Shown piece after piece: positions 35,126-43,089 of a stretch of DNA of 64,000 nucleotides; the stretch's first letter is position 1; each line of letters begins with the position of its first letter. The stretch comes from Thalassospiraceae bacterium LMO-JJ14 (GTDB lineage Bacteria > Pseudomonadota > Alphaproteobacteria > Rhodospirillales > Casp-alpha2), in contig CP134604.1 in NCBI GenBank assembly GCA_021555105.2, forward strand, positions 434,001 through 498,000, given 5' to 3'. The notes beneath the pieces are model-generated. The model searched no databases and was not told where the DNA came from. It worked only from the letters and a program-made list of their open reading frames with translations. The position numbers and the translations under genes were made by a program.

Positions 35126-35200
35126 GCGGGCGTAGCTCAGGGGTAGAGCGCAACCTTGCCAAGGTTGAAGTCGTGAGTTCGAATCTCATCGCCCGCTCCA
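35126..35200 (+). tRNA. tRNA-Gly (anticodon GCC)
   Basis: 75 nt with encoded CCA. The acceptor stem GCGGGCG/CGCCCGC, D arm GCTC/GAGC, anticodon stem CAACC/GGTTG around TTGCCAA, and the T arm with TTCGAAT all pair. It forms the left boundary of the island that ends at the diverged 3' copy at 40522-40569. Confidence 0.97.
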
Positions 35201-35488: not shown

Positions 35489-35658
35489 GATGACCGATAT
35501 ACTCACGTAGTCGAGCCACTGTTATCTCGGTGACCTCAAAACGATCCACTATTCGCAATTGCCGATCTGATGACTGATCCAAATCATTGTGTCGATTTGG
35601 CGCGGATTTAAGCTGCATATTGTGGGTTATTCAGATTTTCAAACGGGGGTTGTTAGAT

Positions 35659-36822
35659 ATGCAGAAACTATGTTTCTCGCTGGCCACCATATTTTTGTTC
35701 GTTTCCGTCCTGGTGTTCACCGGCAAAGATGTCGAAGCGAAGGATGCCAATCAGGTTCTCAAGACCATGGATGCCAATGGTGACGGACGCATAGATAAAG
35801 ACGAGTGGAATCGCAATCCAAAAGGGTTCAAGAAAATTGATGGGGATAAAGATAATTATCTAAGTCTCGACGAACTGATCCGTTTCTTCGGAGGTCAGTC
35901 GAGCGACGAAGAAAAGCCTGCCAAAGGCAGCAGTTCTCAGGTCCAAGCAAACGTATCCAACGAGGGCCTTTGGCAAGGGCCGATTATTGACGTTCACAGC
36001 CAGATCGATGCAGATACCGACCTCAGTTCTATTGTCCCGATGCTCGATCAGGCTGGGGTTTCCAAGGTCATTCTCTCAACACGGTTTAAGCAGCCATCAA
36101 CAGATGTTCTGGCATTTGCTGCGCGGTATCCGGATCGCATCATCCCGGCGGCAAAGACCAAGACCAGATCCTTCACCAAAGGGAAGGCAAATTATGCCGA
36201 TCTCTTCAAAAAGGAACTCGGAAACTATGACTACCGTGCCATTGCGGAAGTCATCATGTGGCACGCTGCAAAGAAGGGTGTCGGAGCTGGAGAATCGACC
36301 ATGGATCCGAGTGACCCGCGTGCGTCTATGATGCTTGAGGCGTCAAGGCAAAAGGGCATTCCGTTCATCGCCCATATCGAGTTTCGGGCCATGGGGTCGA
36401 AAAAATCAGAATACCTGGAGAATCTAGAGGCTGTTATTGCCGCGAATCGAGATGTGCCGATTGGATTGATTCATATGGGCCAGCTGGACGCAAAAGATGC
36501 CGAGCGGCTCCTCCCCAAGCATCCAAACCTGTTTTTCATCACGTCGCACTGTAATCCTATTGCCTATAGACACAACAAGCAGCCATGGACGCGAATGATA
36601 ATAAATTCTGGCTTTGCCCCGGAATGGCACAAGCTCGTCTTGGCACACCCTGATCGTTTTGTCCTCGCTTTTGACAATGTTTTTTACTTTCACTGGAATG
36701 ATATGTTCCTGCCTCAAGTTGAGGTGTGGCGAAAAGTCTTGGCAACAATACCGGGCGCTCACGCCCACGCCATTGCACATGGCAACGCAGAACGACTATG
36801 GAATCTGCTACCGGTTAAATAG
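35659..36822 (+). CDS. Secreted EF-hand / amidohydrolase-like fusion protein
   Basis: 387 residues from the ATG at 35659 (frame opens at 35587). A signal peptide spans about 1-27 (FSLATIFLFVSVLVF, cut near VEA). Two EF-hands follow, DANGDGRIDKDEW (38-50) and DGDKDNYLSLDEL (61-73), then a Ser-rich linker and an amidohydrolase-like TIM barrel from about 108 (IIDVHSQID, HIEF, LIHMGQLD, FVLAFDNVFYFHWNDMF). The first metal motif is D-x-H-x-Q rather than D-x-H-x-H, so activity is uncertain. Base composition is AT-richer than the flanks. It lies inside the tRNA-Gly island. Confidence 0.8.
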   Translation: MQKLCFSLATIFLFVSVLVFTGKDVEAKDANQVLKTMDANGDGRIDKDEWNRNPKGFKKIDGDKDNYLSLDELIRFFGGQSSDEEKPAKGSSSQVQANVSNEGLWQGPIIDVHSQIDADTDLSSIVPMLDQAGVSKVILSTRFKQPSTDVLAFAARYPDRIIPAAKTKTRSFTKGKANYADLFKKELGNYDYRAIAEVIMWHAAKKGVGAGESTMDPSDPRASMMLEASRQKGIPFIAHIEFRAMGSKKSEYLENLEAVIAANRDVPIGLIHMGQLDAKDAERLLPKHPNLFFITSHCNPIAYRHNKQPWTRMIINSGFAPEWHKLVLAHPDRFVLAFDNVFYFHWNDMFLPQVEVWRKVLATIPGAHAHAIAHGNAERLWNLLPVK

Positions 36823-36980: not shown

Positions 36981-39623
36981 TCAGACCTCGCCCAGTGCTT
37001 TCCAGTCTCCTTCCTGAAGCCGGCCGATGATGGGCGACAAATCAACCTGAGACTGGATGACTTGAGCCAGGTCCTTACCGGTCCCCGGGGGTCCGACGAA
37101 GACCGCGCCCTTGAGTATGCCATCCTTGATCACCAGGCGCCGGTGGAGGTTACCGGAATCCGCTGGTTCGGACACGTCGATGACGTCATCACCGGTTTCC
37201 AGATTTCCATACCCTTTCACATCGATGCCGTCCATTTTGAGACTGACCATCGTGTTCGGTGCTTTATAGGCGGCTTCCCTGCCGAACAGGACCTGGGCGG
37301 CAACCGCTGCCTGCGCCGTGCCGACGGCCCAAAGTCCGCCAACCGTCCCGGGTAATTCGGCAACGTCACCGACAGCCAGAATATCCGGGTCCGAAGTACG
37401 CATTTGCGCATCGACGACGATGCCGCGGTTCACCTCCAACCCGATCTTTTCCGGCAACGCCGTATTGGCTTTGACCCCGGCACAGGTCACAAACAGATTC
37501 GCCGGAATGATATCTCCGTTGGTCAGTTCAATGCCTTCTACACGATCATCGCCTTTGATTGCCGCAACCGAGGCGCCCGTCACAACATGTATTCCGAGGG
37601 TCTCCAGAAAATGCTCCAGGAGTTCACTGCCGCGTTCATCCAGTTCCCGGTTCATTAAGCGGCCCGACCGCTGAACAATGGTGGTGTCCAGGTTCAGACG
37701 CCGCAGCGCGTCTGCAGCTTCCACGCCCAGCACACCGCCGCCTTGAACCACCGCCCGGGTGCAGTCTTTTTCCTGCCGCCATGCGCGGATTGCCTGTGCA
37801 TCCACGGCCTCGCGCAAGACGAAACAGCCGGGCTTGTCGACACCCTCTGCCGGCGGGACGGCTGCGGAAGCTCCCTGTGCCATGATCAGCTTGTCGTATG
37901 GCAAGCTCTCCCCGGTGCCGAGTTTAACGAGCTTTTTCTCTCTATCGACATCCGTCGCCCGGGTGTTCAGCCACAAGTCGACATTTTTCTTTTCGTACCA
38001 GTCGGGGGCGAGAAGATAGAGATCGTCCAGCCCGGTCCGGCCATAGAGCAGCCGTCCAATAGCCATGCGATTGTAGAATGGATGGTTTTCGCGGGCGATG
38101 ACGTCAATCTTGCATGTCGGGCTCAAGCGCCGGATTTCGTCTGCAGCCGCCATTCCCGATGTACCGTTACCGATGATGACGATCTTCCGAACCCCGGTTA
38201 CTTCGGCCAGATCAATCTGGTCTGCGGGCGGCGGCGGTTCAGGCAGGTCGTTAGGATCCATATTCAGATCGATCGTCACACCGCCGCCATTTGCTTTGCA
38301 GACGCATGCCATGCGCGCACGGCCTTCAAGACCGAGACGGCGCAGCGTCGCAAGTTCGTCGTCGCCGGGCGGGCTCAAATTCTCCATGCCGTCGACAATC
38401 GCAATGGCGTCGGCGCCGCACATCCCCATCCGGCAGCCGAAGTCCTGCGTGAGGCCTGCGGACTCAATTCCATCCAGCAAGCTGCGGCCGGGGTCGGCGG
38501 CGAAGCTGCGTCCTGACGCCTGATCGGTAACGAGATCGTCTGCCGTATTCGCACCGCCCGCACGCAACGCATCGACCTTAACGCCGACCTTTGGCTGACT
38601 TGTACTGTCGTTAAGGGCACGGAAATCCTGCTCTGCTTTCAATCCGTTTATGATGACTTTAGCGCTCACCAGCAGAACCACTGCCTGTAAAACGTAAGCC
38701 GCCCCGTCCGGCGCGGTGCTGCCCGCCAAATGGAACGCCGTGGTAATGATCCCCTCGGCCGTGAACCAATAGAAAATATTCAACGCGGAAAGTGCCGCAA
38801 AAGCTGCGATCAGGTAATCGGAAACCCGAATGAAAATGCGTGCGGCCATGTAAATGCCAAGCGTTGTCACGATCCAGCTTGCCATGTGCAGGAAATAAGC
38901 GGGGAGCCCCGTTGCCGCCGGATCGGCCGCTGTAAAAAAGCCGATCGCAAAGCCCGGCAAACCGGCAACGAAGAATTTCTTGTGCCCCGCGTACCAGAGA
39001 TCTTTATCTGTCAGGTCGCTCAGAAACGCCGCGCGCGGATTAAAATCGTAGCAATTCTTCTGACAACCGACACACGTCGGACAGTAACCGTTCTTGACGG
39101 TAACAAGCGGCGCATGCCCATAGGCTTTCTGGATCGGCGCCAATGGGCAGAACGTCCCGCACCAGCCGCTCCGCCCCTTGAAGAATACACCGCCCAGGAA
39201 CGCCAACCCCAGGGCAGAGAAGACCAGCACCATCCACGCAAGCGGTTCCTGGTTGAAATAAATGTGGCGTAGGCTGACCAGGAAGAAAAAGGCGAGGACG
39301 GAAATAAAATAAGCCAGATTCTTGGCGGGCACAGGCAACGTCAATTCGCGCGAGAAACCAAATGTCCGTGGCAACTGGTTGACGAAAGCCATTGGGCATA
39401 TTTGCCGCCAGACACCGGGTGCGACGGCAAACAGCAGCGGCAACGACGGGATCAACAGTTTCCAGAAAAGGGCAAATCCAAGTTCAGGTTCGGTCCAGAC
39501 CTTCCAGACAACGAAAAGCATGACGCCGATGGTCGCCAGCCTGAACGCCCACCAAAACCACACCGGCAGGCGTGACGGCATTTCGAGATAACTGGGAAAC
39601 GGTTTGTCGGCAATATCGCTCAT
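36981..39623 (-). CDS. Membrane [4Fe-4S] / [2Fe-2S] ferredoxin / FAD-NAD oxidoreductase triple fusion
   Basis: 880 residues. Part 1 (about 1-325) has some seven or eight membrane segments and NapH/NosR-like cysteines: GWCGTFCPLAP (155, 159) and CPTCVGCQKNC (181, 184, 187, 191). Part 2 (about 345-455) is a plant-type ferredoxin: C397 and C402 in FGCRMGMCGADA, then C440/C442 in MACVCKA; the usual third Cys is Asp405. Part 3 (about 478-880) is a pyridine-nucleotide-disulfide-type reductase: IVIIGNGTSGMAAADEI, VVQGGGVLGVEAADAL, ILAVGDVAEL. Predicted to pass electrons between NAD(P)H and a membrane partner. Substrate unknown. Confidence 0.85.
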   Translation of the reverse strand: MSDIADKPFPSYLEMPSRLPVWFWWAFRLATIGVMLFVVWKVWTEPELGFALFWKLLIPSLPLLFAVAPGVWRQICPMAFVNQLPRTFGFSRELTLPVPAKNLAYFISVLAFFFLVSLRHIYFNQEPLAWMVLVFSALGLAFLGGVFFKGRSGWCGTFCPLAPIQKAYGHAPLVTVKNGYCPTCVGCQKNCYDFNPRAAFLSDLTDKDLWYAGHKKFFVAGLPGFAIGFFTAADPAATGLPAYFLHMASWIVTTLGIYMAARIFIRVSDYLIAAFAALSALNIFYWFTAEGIITTAFHLAGSTAPDGAAYVLQAVVLLVSAKVIINGLKAEQDFRALNDSTSQPKVGVKVDALRAGGANTADDLVTDQASGRSFAADPGRSLLDGIESAGLTQDFGCRMGMCGADAIAIVDGMENLSPPGDDELATLRRLGLEGRARMACVCKANGGGVTIDLNMDPNDLPEPPPPADQIDLAEVTGVRKIVIIGNGTSGMAAADEIRRLSPTCKIDVIARENHPFYNRMAIGRLLYGRTGLDDLYLLAPDWYEKKNVDLWLNTRATDVDREKKLVKLGTGESLPYDKLIMAQGASAAVPPAEGVDKPGCFVLREAVDAQAIRAWRQEKDCTRAVVQGGGVLGVEAADALRRLNLDTTIVQRSGRLMNRELDERGSELLEHFLETLGIHVVTGASVAAIKGDDRVEGIELTNGDIIPANLFVTCAGVKANTALPEKIGLEVNRGIVVDAQMRTSDPDILAVGDVAELPGTVGGLWAVGTAQAAVAAQVLFGREAAYKAPNTMVSLKMDGIDVKGYGNLETGDDVIDVSEPADSGNLHRRLVIKDGILKGAVFVGPPGTGKDLAQVIQSQVDLSPIIGRLQEGDWKALGEV

Positions 39624-39662
39624 TGACTGGAGACTCCGTGCGGGGCGCTTTTGTAGGGAAGA

Positions 39663-40130
39663 TTATTTTTTGTTGGCACGGTCTGTCGTCCAACGAAGCC
39701 GCATGGCAAGAACCCTGCCCAAATCATAAAGCAGGGTACGGGCAATCTGTGGTTCCCAGGCAGCCAGGCTTTCAAAATTTTCCCGTGTGACGCGGACAGC
39801 GGTTCCCCGGTCGCGGGCCCTGATTGTGGCGCTTCTGGGGGCACCGTCAAAAAACGCAATTTCTCCGAACACGGAGCCTTCAGAAATGCCTGCCAGAATC
39901 GTTTCCTGCCCATTTGTATCGACGACCACATCGACGGAACCGTTCGTCAGAATGTAAAAGGAATCATCCTTTTCGCCGACCCGGATCAGGTCTTCGCCGG
40001 CTTTGAAATGCCGTGTTTCAACGATCATGAGCACTCGCGACCAATCCTCGTCCGAGAGGTCCGCAAGCAATGTTATTTCTTCCAGATCGGCCGGAACAGT
40101 GGCCGTATCGCTGTAGTCGAACAGCCCCAT
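39663..40130 (-). CDS. Cyclic-nucleotide-binding domain protein without DNA-binding domain
   Basis: 155 residues from the ATG at 40130, behind AAAGGCGGGGG; the frame opens at 40154. A CRP-like beta-roll: FKAGEDLIRVGEKDDSFYIL, then the phosphate-binding cassette FGEIAFFDGAPRSATIRARD with the Glu and Arg that hold cAMP/cGMP. The protein ends after the C-helix; no helix-turn-helix is present, so it is not a CRP/FNR transcription factor. It lies 39 bp upstream of the 880-residue oxidoreductase on the same strand, suggesting it modulates that enzyme. Confidence 0.85.
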   Translation of the reverse strand: MGLFDYSDTATVPADLEEITLLADLSDEDWSRVLMIVETRHFKAGEDLIRVGEKDDSFYILTNGSVDVVVDTNGQETILAGISEGSVFGEIAFFDGAPRSATIRARDRGTAVRVTRENFESLAAWEPQIARTLLYDLGRVLAMRLRWTTDRANKK

Positions 40131-40713
40131 ATTACCCCCGCCTTTTTGCTTCATCTTCTTTTAATCCGGAGACGGTGCCCCGTTTTTCTACCCAGCGCCA
40201 AACCTGCAGCCTGTATCGTTTATTATTAAAGTTAATGCAAAAAAGACGAATTGGCTGTGTCGGGGCTGAAGTCATTTATTAGCATTCCCGCCGTGTGGCC
40301 ACTACAGCGTATAAACCACAGGCACATTGTGATGCCGGCTATGGGTCAGATACGGTGAAAAGGTTGACGTCCGCATATAGTTGGGAAACGGACTAGATTC
40401 ACCGTGTCCAAACTGTGCCCCGGCAAATTCGTTTTATTTCCGATTATCCCCTTTTATTCCGGCTTAGCGTGCCACAGCACTCGAACAAATTATTGATATT
40501 TATAGCTTTATGATTTTGGCGACTTTGCCAAGGTTGATGTTGTGAGTTCGAATCACATCGCCCGCTCGATTTCCTCCCGGCCCGGCTACCGGCTTTCTCA
40601 TAAAATTCCGCATCGGTTGACGCGTTAAAAGCGCGTCATGCACAATGGCCCCCGCCAAACCATACCCGCATTGCGGCTTTACGCATCCACGGCACCTATA
40701 ACAGGCGGAAATA
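40131..40713. other. Intergenic region containing the right edge of the island
   Basis: About 580 bp, AT-richer to the left. The only structured item is the diverged tRNA-Gly 3' copy (40522-40569). A minus-strand frame over it (40500-40742) reads the tRNA antisense and shows no family; I do not call a gene. Confidence 0.6.
40522..40569 (+). repeat. Diverged copy of the tRNA-Gly 3' part (probable att site)
   Basis: Matches 35153-35200 of the tRNA at 43 of 48 positions by my count, including TTGCCAAGGTTGA, GTGAGTTCGAATC and CATCGCCCGCTC. The 5' half of the tRNA is absent. The match lies in direct orientation 5,369 bp from the tRNA, the expected layout for an element that integrated in the tRNA 3' end. 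Confidence 0.85.
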
Positions 40714-43089
40714 ATGCACCGGACGATACGTGCATCTCTCAACGAAGATTTTATCAGAAGTGCCCGGCTCGTTGAGCGAGATCAGTATCCGGAAATAAAA
40801 AAATTCTTCGATTATGTTTTGGAAAATGAACGCGACAACCTCTCGGCAATGTACGGCCATGCGATCCTGGCGCTCAGGATTTCGGATACGGCCACGGCGG
40901 TGCGCTATTTCCATGAAATCGCCCAAAGATGCATCCTCTATCCGGAATTTCTCGGCGATTTCTTTCAGGACTTCCAGAGCTACGAACAATTACGCGAAGT
41001 CGCCGATGCATATATTCAGGCCTTCCCCGAGGAACCGTTCGGCTACATTTTGAAGCTGGTGGGCTGTTACAACAAAAATGACATGGATACGGTCCGCGAG
41101 ACCTTCGATGCGTATTACCGCAGAGGCCGGCCCGGGCTGCATTTTCAACCGAGCACCATCGCATCGATTTTCGACGCCCGGCGGGGTGGGCCGCGCGTGT
41201 CGGTCGCACCGCAAACGCCGGATCAATCTCTGACTGACACGATCAGTGATGCGCCGGCACGGACGGAAAGCGCCTTTACCGGGACCTACAGCGTTCTGAC
41301 GATGCCGGGAGAAGCCGTGGGTTTGGACGGCGCGGTCCTGAACGGGCAGATCGAAGGCGCGACGCAGCCGACGCAGTATTACTTCCGCTATGGCACGGCG
41401 CCGGATGAACTGACGCAACGTACGCCGCCGCGCCAGATGCCGCCCGGGCGCAACGGCCGCCTGATAGAGAACGGCGCCAACATGTTTCGCCGCATGACCG
41501 CGTTCAGCCTTACCGTGCGCTTTGTCGAAACCGGCAACGACGCTATCGGCGATGGTGTTGCGATGCGCTTCGAAGGGCCTTTCGGCAAGGACCGCAATCA
41601 CCGCGAGGGCATTGGCGTCATCGACCTGCTTATGGGCTGGACGTCTGCCGTGCATCTGCGGGGGGCCGTGCCGGAAGCCTACGAATCCGAAACCTTTCCC
41701 AAACCTGCTTATCCGGGAGAGGCGATGGATCTGCGCGATGCCGGATTCAGCGTCACGTACCGGGTACGAAATCTGGATGCGAAGAAATTCTTCCCTGTCG
41801 CCTGGGTGCACGGTGCCACCGGCGAGGCGATGTTTCCGGCGTATGCGGATAATTGTGCCGCCTGGGCCCGGACCGGCGATCTGGGAGGAGAAGACTTCAT
41901 CAATGACGACACATGGCATCGGGCCGAGTTCACGTTATCGGCGGATTCCCGTGCGTGGAGTTTCTGCGGCAATAATGTCGAGGAAACCAATGCTTCTATG
42001 GAGCGCTATTGCTACCACCCGATCGGGGATGTTTTACGCGAAAACCGTGCCGGCAACATCTGCCTGTGTTTTGTTTGCGGCGATGAAATGGACCCGCCGG
42101 TTGGGGACATCGATATTGCGTCCCTGGCCCTGGCATACCGGTCGTATTCGCTTCTCGGGCCAGGTCAGCAAGCCGCGCTTGTCCGCCATCCCGCCAACAG
42201 CGGAACCGATCCCGGCCTGCTGACGAATGGCTGGATCGGCGCCATGGGGCATTGCTGGCAAAGCGGGGCAGTGCCGTCCGAGGCGCAGGATTTTATCTGG
42301 AAGTTCCGCGAAGATGCGGCGATACGCAGCATAAGGCTGCATCAGCATCCCTTGTGGCCGGCGCGCCAGGTATCGCTGGCGACCTCCGCGGACGGTGCTG
42401 ATTTCAAGACGCTCTGGGATGGAACCATGCGCGACGTTCCGGAAGACATCGCATTATGGCCGACGGGGAGCGAACCCGTTGCGGATGATTCCAGGAAGCC
42501 CTTCAATCTTGCCGAAAGCATCGTTTTCGACGCCCCGGGGCGCGGCCGATACCTGCGGCTGCGGATCGCATCCGGATACCGCGACGCACATTGGGGGCTG
42601 GACGCGATCGAGGTCTTCGGCGATGCGCCGGCGTTCATGCCTTCTGCGGAAAAGTTCACCCTATCGGAAGACCTCGCCGGCCTGGCCCCGGGGGCGCTGT
42701 TTGCCCAGCTGGTGACGGAGAACGCCAGCGGCCGCACGCAAGGGCCGGTGATCGAAATCGCCCGTCCTGATGATGTGCGCCCCTTGCTTTCCGACCCTGC
42801 CGTGATCCGCCGGTGCGGGTCTTCGGTGTTTGTCGCATTCAGGACCAATGCCATGGGGGCGTGGGGGACGTTATCGGGCAAGCTCCGCGATGCGGACGGG
42901 GAAGAGATCGTCTCTGCCCCCGTTTCCATCGGCAAACAGCAAGCCGCCCGCACAACGTTTCTGTGTTTCGAGGGCATCGACACGGGCCGGCCATACAAAG
43001 GCGAGGCGGTCGCGACGACTGCACACGGTGACAGCGCGCCCTGCCTGTTCACAATCGATGCCGTAGACTCCGATAACACCGGCTCGTGA
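40714..43089 (+). CDS. Large protein of unknown function (helical N-terminus, discoidin-like middle)
   Basis: 791 residues; no signal peptide. The first 140 or so are helical, TPR-like (SAMYGHAILALRISDTATAV, DFFQDFQSYEQLREVADAY). Residues about 190-470 are beta-rich with a YYFRYGTAPDELTQRT block that resembles fibronectin-like text. Residues about 494-635 look like an F5/8 (discoidin) domain: LLTNGWIGAMGHCW, IRSIRLHQHPLWPARQVSLA, RYLRLRIASGYRDAHWGLDA. The C-terminus is another beta domain. I do not recognise the whole architecture. A carbohydrate- or surface-related role is a guess. It lies just outside the island. Confidence 0.72.
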   Translation: MHRTIRASLNEDFIRSARLVERDQYPEIKKFFDYVLENERDNLSAMYGHAILALRISDTATAVRYFHEIAQRCILYPEFLGDFFQDFQSYEQLREVADAYIQAFPEEPFGYILKLVGCYNKNDMDTVRETFDAYYRRGRPGLHFQPSTIASIFDARRGGPRVSVAPQTPDQSLTDTISDAPARTESAFTGTYSVLTMPGEAVGLDGAVLNGQIEGATQPTQYYFRYGTAPDELTQRTPPRQMPPGRNGRLIENGANMFRRMTAFSLTVRFVETGNDAIGDGVAMRFEGPFGKDRNHREGIGVIDLLMGWTSAVHLRGAVPEAYESETFPKPAYPGEAMDLRDAGFSVTYRVRNLDAKKFFPVAWVHGATGEAMFPAYADNCAAWARTGDLGGEDFINDDTWHRAEFTLSADSRAWSFCGNNVEETNASMERYCYHPIGDVLRENRAGNICLCFVCGDEMDPPVGDIDIASLALAYRSYSLLGPGQQAALVRHPANSGTDPGLLTNGWIGAMGHCWQSGAVPSEAQDFIWKFREDAAIRSIRLHQHPLWPARQVSLATSADGADFKTLWDGTMRDVPEDIALWPTGSEPVADDSRKPFNLAESIVFDAPGRGRYLRLRIASGYRDAHWGLDAIEVFGDAPAFMPSAEKFTLSEDLAGLAPGALFAQLVTENASGRTQGPVIEIARPDDVRPLLSDPAVIRRCGSSVFVAFRTNAMGAWGTLSGKLRDADGEEIVSAPVSIGKQQAARTTFLCFEGIDTGRPYKGEAVATTAHGDSAPCLFTIDAVDSDNTGS

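What the first reader, a model, noticed from the sequence alone, without database searches (positions are those of the whole stretch)
36981..40130. Possible new cNMP-linked electron-transfer module
An 880-residue protein joins a NapH/NosR-like membrane 4Fe-4S module, a ferredoxin domain (with Asp in place of the usual third Cys) and an FAD/NAD reductase, giving a complete NAD(P)H-to-membrane wire in one chain. 39 bp upstream on the same strand is a cyclic-nucleotide-binding protein with no DNA-binding domain. The pairing suggests direct second-messenger control of a redox enzyme. I know no named system of this kind.
Basis: partly seen in the sequence, partly recalled or inferred. Interest (0 to 1): 0.75.

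Follow-up and report, generated by a model that had tools for sequence, protein, structure and literature searches.

The report
Signal-gated membrane electron-transfer gene pair
Two neighbouring genes, a small cyclic-nucleotide-binding protein and a large membrane enzyme built to carry electrons from NAD(P)H into the membrane, form an apparently undescribed unit that recurs in unrelated bacteria, and in some lineages the cyclic-nucleotide input has been replaced by a phospho-threonine-reading (FHA) input, which suggests a respiratory-type enzyme switched directly by cell signalling.

Summary
On the minus strand an 880-aa protein (36981-39623) joins an 8-helix NapH-like 4Fe-4S membrane domain, a 2Fe-2S domain with Asp as third ligand, and a BphA4/TodA-type FAD/NAD(P)H reductase. 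A 155-aa cyclic-nucleotide-binding (CNB) protein without HTH ends 39 bp upstream.

The pairing is not chance. A GTDB scan found 135 relatives and kept 80 loci (Alpha-, Beta-, Gammaproteobacteria, Chloroflexi, Actinobacteria). CNB lies beside the enzyme in 59 of 77 informative loci. All 10 cysteine ligands and the Asp are invariant in 76/76.

New finding: the input module is swapped. In one clade a T6SS-type FHA gene precedes CNB, and the CNB has lost its cNMP-binding residues (19/19, against 0/30 without FHA; essentially one evolutionary event). In Actinobacteria FHA is fused to the enzyme, CNB is absent, and Ser/Thr kinase genes are nearby. Class III cyclase genes adjoin the unit in several lineages.

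Best reading: a NAD(P)H-driven membrane electron-transfer enzyme gated by cNMP or, elsewhere, by phospho-signalling. Ligand binding, complex formation and the electron acceptor are untested. No named system was found in the open-access library.

The parts
36981..39623 (-). 880-aa electron-transfer fusion protein (membrane 4Fe-4S domain + 2Fe-2S ferredoxin domain + FAD/NAD(P)H reductase)
   Evidence: ORF; Pfam; 76-member alignment A3; AlphaFold2 model mean pLDDT 89.6
38604..39623 (-). residues 1-340: 8 predicted membrane helices; invariant C76, C155, C159, C181, C184, C187, C191 (4Fe-4S ligands), all predicted on the cytoplasmic side; NapH-like
   Evidence: Fer4_5 in 29/32 and NapH model in 30/32 members; helices; 76/76 invariance; positive-inside
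38244..38546 (-). residues 360-460: 2Fe-2S ferredoxin domain, ligands C397, C402, D405, C440 (Asp replaces third Cys)
   Evidence: Pfam Fer2; nearest PDB sequence Ferredoxin-4 9i2a (2e-14); D405 invariant; same CRxGxCGxD signature in E. coli SdhB
36984..38192 (-). residues 478-880: FAD/NAD(P)H reductase of the oxygenase-ferredoxin-reductase type; no conserved Cys
   Evidence: VIA-align top hits TodA 3ef6 Z 43.7, 4emi Z 43.5, CYP199A2 reductase 3fg2 Z 43.4; Cys columns
39663..40130 (-). cyclic-nucleotide-binding protein, 155 aa from Met9 of the longest ORF (longest ORF ends at 40154), no HTH, stop 39 bp before the fusion's ATG
   Evidence: model pLDDT 86.5, top fold matches CRP/CAP 4ev0 Z 18.6
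39816..39866 (-). phosphate-binding cassette GEIAFFDGAPRSATIRA with E98, R107, S108 intact (numbering of the 163-aa ORF)
   Evidence: alignment A4; residue table
35126..35200 (+). tRNA-Gly(GCC), one border of the 5.4-kb segment that holds the pair
   Evidence: ARAGORN; Rfam
40519..40580 (+). decayed copy (84% over 62 nt) of the 3' part of tRNA-Gly and its flank; other border of the segment
   Evidence: repeat family D1

Best explanation
A two-subunit, signal-gated membrane electron-transfer complex. NAD(P)H reduces FAD in the C-terminal BphA4/TodA-like domain. Single electrons pass to the tethered [2Fe-2S] cluster (three Cys, one Asp) and then to the 4Fe-4S centre(s) on the cytoplasmic face of the 8-helix NapH-like domain, which hands them to a membrane acceptor, most likely the quinone pool. 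The small CNB protein docks on the cytoplasmic side and, on binding cAMP or cGMP, switches this flow on or off. Shown here by computation: conserved operon, invariant ligands, domain identities, intact cNMP pocket residues in the window's CNB, cyclases in the genome. Inferred: complex formation, direction and sign of control, nucleotide identity, quinone as acceptor.
For: Pair conserved: CNB directly upstream on the same strand in 58 GTDB loci and downstream in 1, of 77 informative; median stop-to-start gap 23.5 bp. Fusion and CNB diverge together (distance correlation 0.82, 0/2000 permutations; not corrected for species relatedness), and in a Rubrivivax assembly with two versions each enzyme keeps its own type of CNB. 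All 10 Cys ligands and D405 invariant in 76/76. No conserved Cys in the reductase domain and nearest folds are one-electron ferredoxin reductases, which argues for an electron transferase rather than a disulfide or persulfide reductase. Window CNB has E98/R107/S108 intact on a CRP fold. Eight class III cyclases and no FHA domain in the genome. Cyclase genes adjoin the unit in Chloroflexi (L052, 87 bp upstream of CNB) and Rhodoblastus (CHASE2-cyclase, divergent), lie near it in Aliikangiella, and an FHA-cyclase adjoins it in Trebonia. The swap of CNB for FHA around the same enzyme suggests these are its control inputs.
Against: No biochemical data. Six of 77 informative loci have neither CNB nor FHA, so some enzymes may work without the regulator. 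No cyclase lies beside the pair in the window. The acceptor is unknown: there is no conserved His for haem and no quinone-site model was tested. The membrane domain has no relative in the PDB by sequence. Complex formation could not be modelled.
Confidence: 0.52

Rival explanations
1. Redox sensor with information flowing the other way: the fusion senses the NAD(P)H/quinone balance and passes it to CNB/FHA partners, cyclases and kinases, which are outputs rather than inputs.
For: Cyclase and Ser/Thr-kinase genes adjoin the unit in several lineages; an FHA-cyclase fusion in Trebonia L073 could be an output; the CNB has no effector domain of its own.
Against: CNB and FHA domains read signals rather than make them; most loci, including the window, have no cyclase or kinase beside the pair; a complete NAD(P)H-to-FeS chain is more than a sensor needs.
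Confidence: 0.17
2. The CNB protein is a structural or targeting subunit (assembly, localisation, dimerisation through its long C-terminal helix); nucleotide binding is incidental.
For: A whole clade keeps CNB beside the enzyme after losing its nucleotide-binding residues (19/19 with FHA), so CNB has a role that does not need the ligand.
Against: In loci without FHA the binding residues stay intact in 30 of 32 tested, across several phyla, which suggests selection for binding; actinobacterial enzymes manage without CNB.
Confidence: 0.15
3. Ordinary unregulated NAD(P)H-dependent reductase feeding an unlinked membrane enzyme (desaturase, oxygenase or metal-reducing CcoG-like chemistry), with CNB a merely co-transcribed neighbour.
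For: Closest folds are oxygenase reductases; the membrane domain resembles the NapH/4Fe-4S group; no consistent third partner gene was found.
Against: CNB or FHA present in 71/77 informative loci across phyla is too specific for an incidental neighbour.
Confidence: 0.1
4. Pycsar-like anti-phage unit: a cNMP made on infection activates a CNB-controlled membrane effector.
For: CNB matches PycTIR/PycC models of PADLOC (best 3.5e-16); cyclases nearby in a few loci; the pair lies in a tRNA-bounded segment.
Against: The CNB match is generic to the fold; the fusion matches no PADLOC family; no cyclase beside the window pair; all redox ligands are invariant, unlike a simple membrane-disrupting or NAD-depleting effector; no relative in viral contigs.
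Confidence: 0.03

Closest known systems
NapH / MauN-type membrane ferredoxins (also NosR, CcoG/FixG group)
   Same: Membrane helices with CxxxCP-type motif and a cytoplasmic CxxCxxCxxxC 4Fe-4S motif; NapH model hits 30/32 members.
   Different: Scores far below the NapH cut-off (20 vs 234 bits), match covers only about 60 residues; one CxxCxxCxxxC motif; fused to Fer2 and an NAD(P)H reductase; no recurrent nap genes nearby.
Oxygenase-coupled ferredoxin reductases (BphA4, TodA, putidaredoxin reductase)
   Same: Reductase fold (Z 40-44), no redox-active Cys pair, partner is a 2Fe-2S protein.
   Different: Here reductase, ferredoxin and membrane domain are one chain and no oxygenase is linked.
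NirB N-terminal domain
   Same: Best NCBIfam alignment of the reductase part (7e-87).
   Different: 292 bits against a cut-off of 578; no nitrite reductase domains.
E. coli SdhB [2Fe-2S] site
   Same: CRxGxCGxD signature with Asp as third ligand.
   Different: Otherwise little similarity (30 columns, hhalign probability 30); nearest solved ferredoxin is Ferredoxin-4, which has Cys there.
CRP-type CNB domains; cNMP-controlled effectors (CRP, PKA-R, Pycsar PycTIR, Bd1971 EAL enzyme)
   Same: Fold and phosphate-binding cassette.
   Different: No HTH, kinase, TIR or EAL domain; the partner is a separate redox enzyme.

Membership tests
NapH (quinol dehydrogenase ferredoxin subunit) | Curated NCBIfam equivalog score | tested here: not met
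   PRK09477.1: 20 bits vs cut-off 234 for the window
NapH (quinol dehydrogenase ferredoxin subunit) | Membrane helices + CxxxCP + CxxCxxCxxxC 4Fe-4S motif | tested here: met
   C155xxxC159P and C181xxC184xxC187xxxC191 invariant; 8 helices
NirB nitrite reductase | Full NirB with sirohaem domains, score over cut-off | tested here: not met
   292.6 vs 578.35 bits; only residues 1-389 of 794 of the model matched
Oxygenase-type ferredoxin reductase (BphA4/TodA fold) | Fold and absence of redox-active Cys | tested here: met
   Z 43.7 to 3ef6, 393 residues, rmsd 2.8; no conserved Cys in 478-880
Oxygenase-type ferredoxin reductase (BphA4/TodA fold) | Linked terminal oxygenase | tested here: not met
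   No recurrent oxygenase gene in the neighbourhoods
cNMP-binding CNB domain | Phosphate-binding cassette with Glu and Arg | tested here: met
   E98, R107, S108 present
cNMP-binding CNB domain | Binds cAMP or cGMP | not testable with these tools
   Needs a binding assay
CRP/FNR transcription factor | C-terminal HTH | tested here: not met
   Protein ends after the C-helix
Pycsar defence system | Cognate pyrimidine cyclase beside a CNB effector with TIR/TM domain | tested here: not met
   No cyclase beside the window pair (positions); fusion has no PADLOC match
Disulfide/persulfide reductase or NADH oxidase/peroxidase | Active-site Cys next to FAD | tested here: not met
   Invariant Y517-N518-R519-M520 in that region; no conserved Cys

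The most novel reading that the evidence does not exclude
A previously unrecognised class of respiratory-type enzyme: an NAD(P)H dehydrogenase of the membrane whose electron flow is gated allosterically by a signalling adaptor, with interchangeable adaptors reading cyclic nucleotides (CNB) or protein phosphorylation (FHA), so that second messengers and Ser/Thr kinases control redox balance directly instead of through transcription.
Probability: 0.4. Interest if true: 0.82.

Novelty: new variant of a known kind. Interest (0 to 1): 0.64.

Why it matters
If true, bacteria have a way to throttle electron entry into the membrane by second messenger or by protein phosphorylation within seconds, without transcription. 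The rare, patchily distributed unit also offers a natural swap experiment (intact CNB; dead CNB plus FHA; FHA fused) for how one enzyme is rewired to a different signal, and a single-chain NAD(P)H-FAD-2Fe2S-4Fe4S model for the poorly understood NapH/NosR-type membrane domains.

Tried and rejected
Restriction of the family to one lineage: rejected. Plasmid relatives: only the NirB-like part matches. Phage relatives: none. A CRP or FNR/FixK box before the CNB gene: match counts in the window are at chance level and none lies in the 5' region. Linkage to a tRNA gene as a general trait: not seen in other loci. PDB homologue of the membrane domain by sequence: none up to E = 5; the structure search was filled by the reductase domain, so the membrane fold stays untested. 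NADPH preference: R652 sits where BphA4 has T176, by my own pairing of the strand (E175/T176/Q177 taken from the PDB titles and from memory); R in 71/76 but residue 651 varies E/Q/H; left open. Neighbourhood genes other than CNB, FHA, kinase and cyclase: no consistent partner. The Fisher test for FHA versus CNB decay (p = 4e-12) must not be read as many independent events: the tree shows essentially one clade.

Full report
What is there. The finding is accurate. On the minus strand the window holds an 880-aa ORF (36981-39623) and, 39 bp upstream of it, a small CNB-domain ORF whose longest form ends at 40154 and whose likely start, judged from homologues, is Met9 at 40130. Pfam places Fer2 at residues 364-443 and Pyr_redox_2 at 479-763 of the large protein, and cNMP_binding alone in the small one. 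The first 340 residues give only a weak hit for the window sequence, but 29 of 32 family members match Fer4_5 and 30 of 32 match the NapH model over the 4Fe-4S part (best 5.5e-9). An AlphaFold2 model built on 76 relatives has mean pLDDT 89.6: eight long helices up to residue about 336, a ferredoxin domain, and a reductase domain that aligns with toluene dioxygenase reductase (3ef6, Z 43.7, 393 residues, 2.8 A) and with BphA4 and putidaredoxin reductase at Z 40-41.

Anatomy of the wire. Ten cysteines are invariant in 76 of 76 sequences: C76, C155, C159, C181, C184, C187, C191 in the membrane domain and C397, C402, C440 in the ferredoxin domain; D405 at the third ferredoxin ligand position is also invariant. 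The seven membrane-domain cysteines lie in two loops that the positive-inside rule puts on the cytoplasmic side, with both termini cytoplasmic; whether they hold one or two clusters is open. No histidine is conserved, so a b-type haem is unlikely, and no cysteine is conserved in the reductase domain, so disulfide, persulfide or NADH-oxidase chemistry is unlikely. The Asp ligand is not new: E. coli SdhB reads CREGVCGSD at the same place, where Asp63 is a known ligand of the cluster (own knowledge, not tested here). The nearest solved ferredoxin is Ferredoxin-4 (9i2a, 2e-14), which has Cys there.

The pair is a conserved unit. A scan of 84,980 GTDB species with an alignment profile found 135 relatives, of which 80 loci were kept: Alpha-, Beta- and Gammaproteobacteria, Chloroflexi and Actinobacteria by record title. 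It is a rare unit: three other genomes of 289 in the class sample have full-length relatives, and none besides the window's own among 398 sampled across the phylum at a strict threshold. CNB lies directly upstream on the same strand in 58 loci and downstream in one; 11 loci have an FHA domain fused to the enzyme instead; three contigs start too close to judge; of the remaining seven, one has an FHA gene upstream and six have neither. The median gap from CNB stop to enzyme start is 23.5 bp. Divergence of CNB and enzyme is correlated (r = 0.82, 0 of 2000 permutations; not corrected for species relatedness) and 35 of 53 share the same nearest neighbour. One Rubrivivax assembly carries two units (L098, L104), and each enzyme groups with its own kind of CNB.

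The input has been swapped. In 23 loci a gene for an FHA protein of one cluster (with the C-terminal domain of T6SS FHA proteins, PF20232, in the two members tested) lies upstream. In those loci CNB has lost the Glu and nearly always the Arg of the phosphate-binding cassette: 19 of 19 with FHA are degenerate, and 30 of 30 with the intact pair of residues have no FHA; L038 and L100 are degenerate without FHA. On the enzyme tree this is essentially one clade (two changes of state), so the correlation reflects about one event and its inheritance rather than 19. Separately, in a clade of Nocardia, Geodermatophilus, Antrihabitans and Actinomycetospora the CNB is gone and an FHA domain with its GR, SRxH and NG motifs is fused to the N-terminus of the enzyme, with Ser/Thr kinase genes in the fetched flanks of 9 of these 11 loci and an FHA-type protein convergently downstream in 10. 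A Ser/Thr kinase precedes CNB in a gammaproteobacterial locus, L071. Class III cyclases sit 87 bp upstream of CNB in L052 (Chloroflexi), divergently beside CNB in L036/L039 (Rhodoblastus, CHASE2-cyclase), about 2.5 kb away in L093 (Aliikangiella), and as an FHA-cyclase fusion beside the enzyme in L073. The five cyclase loci all fall in the inner half of the fetched flanks, but the sample is small.

In the window's genome the cNMP reading fits best: the CNB cassette GEIAFFDGAPRSAT is intact, the genome has eight class III cyclases, 16 CNB-domain matches, no FHA domain at all and only a few kinases. The CNB model matches CRP-type structures (4ev0, Z 18.6; cAMP-bound CAP 1g6n, Z 16.5).

Most likely mechanism. 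NAD(P)H reduces FAD; single electrons go to the tethered Cys3Asp [2Fe-2S] cluster, then to the cytoplasmic 4Fe-4S centre(s) of the membrane domain, then to a membrane acceptor, most likely quinone. CNB docks on the cytoplasmic face and its nucleotide state gates the flow. The redox order rests on family knowledge and domain order; docking, gating and acceptor are inference. The strongest argument that CNB is a control input is that evolution replaced it by another signal reader, FHA, around the same enzyme. The main rivals are a redox sensor with reversed information flow and a structural role for CNB.

Provenance of the window copy. The pair lies in a 5.4-kb segment bounded by an intact tRNA-Gly(GCC) at 35126-35200 and a decayed copy of its 3' part at 40519-40580 (84% over 62 nt), with G+C near 0.50 at both ends against about 0.60 around. 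There is no integrase gene among the larger ORFs inside. This suggests an old tRNA-site insertion and fits the patchy distribution, but it is not a general property of the unit.

Novelty and score. Each part is of a known type; the assembly and its swappable signal input are, as far as the library shows, undescribed. I rate it a new variant of a known kind (signal-regulated enzyme, NapH-like redox protein), with a fair chance that experiment would raise it to a class of its own. Interest 0.64.

Noticed in passing
window 35126-35200 and 40519-40580: Intact tRNA-Gly(GCC) and a decayed 84% copy of its 3' part bound a 5.4-kb low-G+C-edged segment without a recognised integrase: signature of an old tRNA-site insertion that carries the pair.
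   Followed up: yes
window 35587-36822 (+): 411-aa protein with two EF-hands and a C-terminal amidohydrolase-like region inside the same segment, convergent with the fusion; no NCBIfam family reached its cut-off.
   Followed up: partly
window 40714-43089 (+): 791-aa ORF, divergent from the CNB gene, without any Pfam match.
   Followed up: no
L034 7803-10451: The first about 69 residues of the fusion appear replaced by what looks like a cupin domain; real fusion or assembly chimera.
   Followed up: no
L035 8064-11531: Version of the fusion with an additional C-terminal region of about 270 residues and neither CNB nor FHA nearby.
   Followed up: no
G000 (window's genome): 16 CNB-domain matches, several in short frames of about 110-195 aa that may lack a DNA-binding domain, together with 8 class III cyclases: a rich cNMP network.
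   Followed up: partly
L073 2763-3782 (-): FHA domain fused to a class III cyclase domain, convergent with and overlapping the end of the fusion gene in Trebonia.
   Followed up: partly
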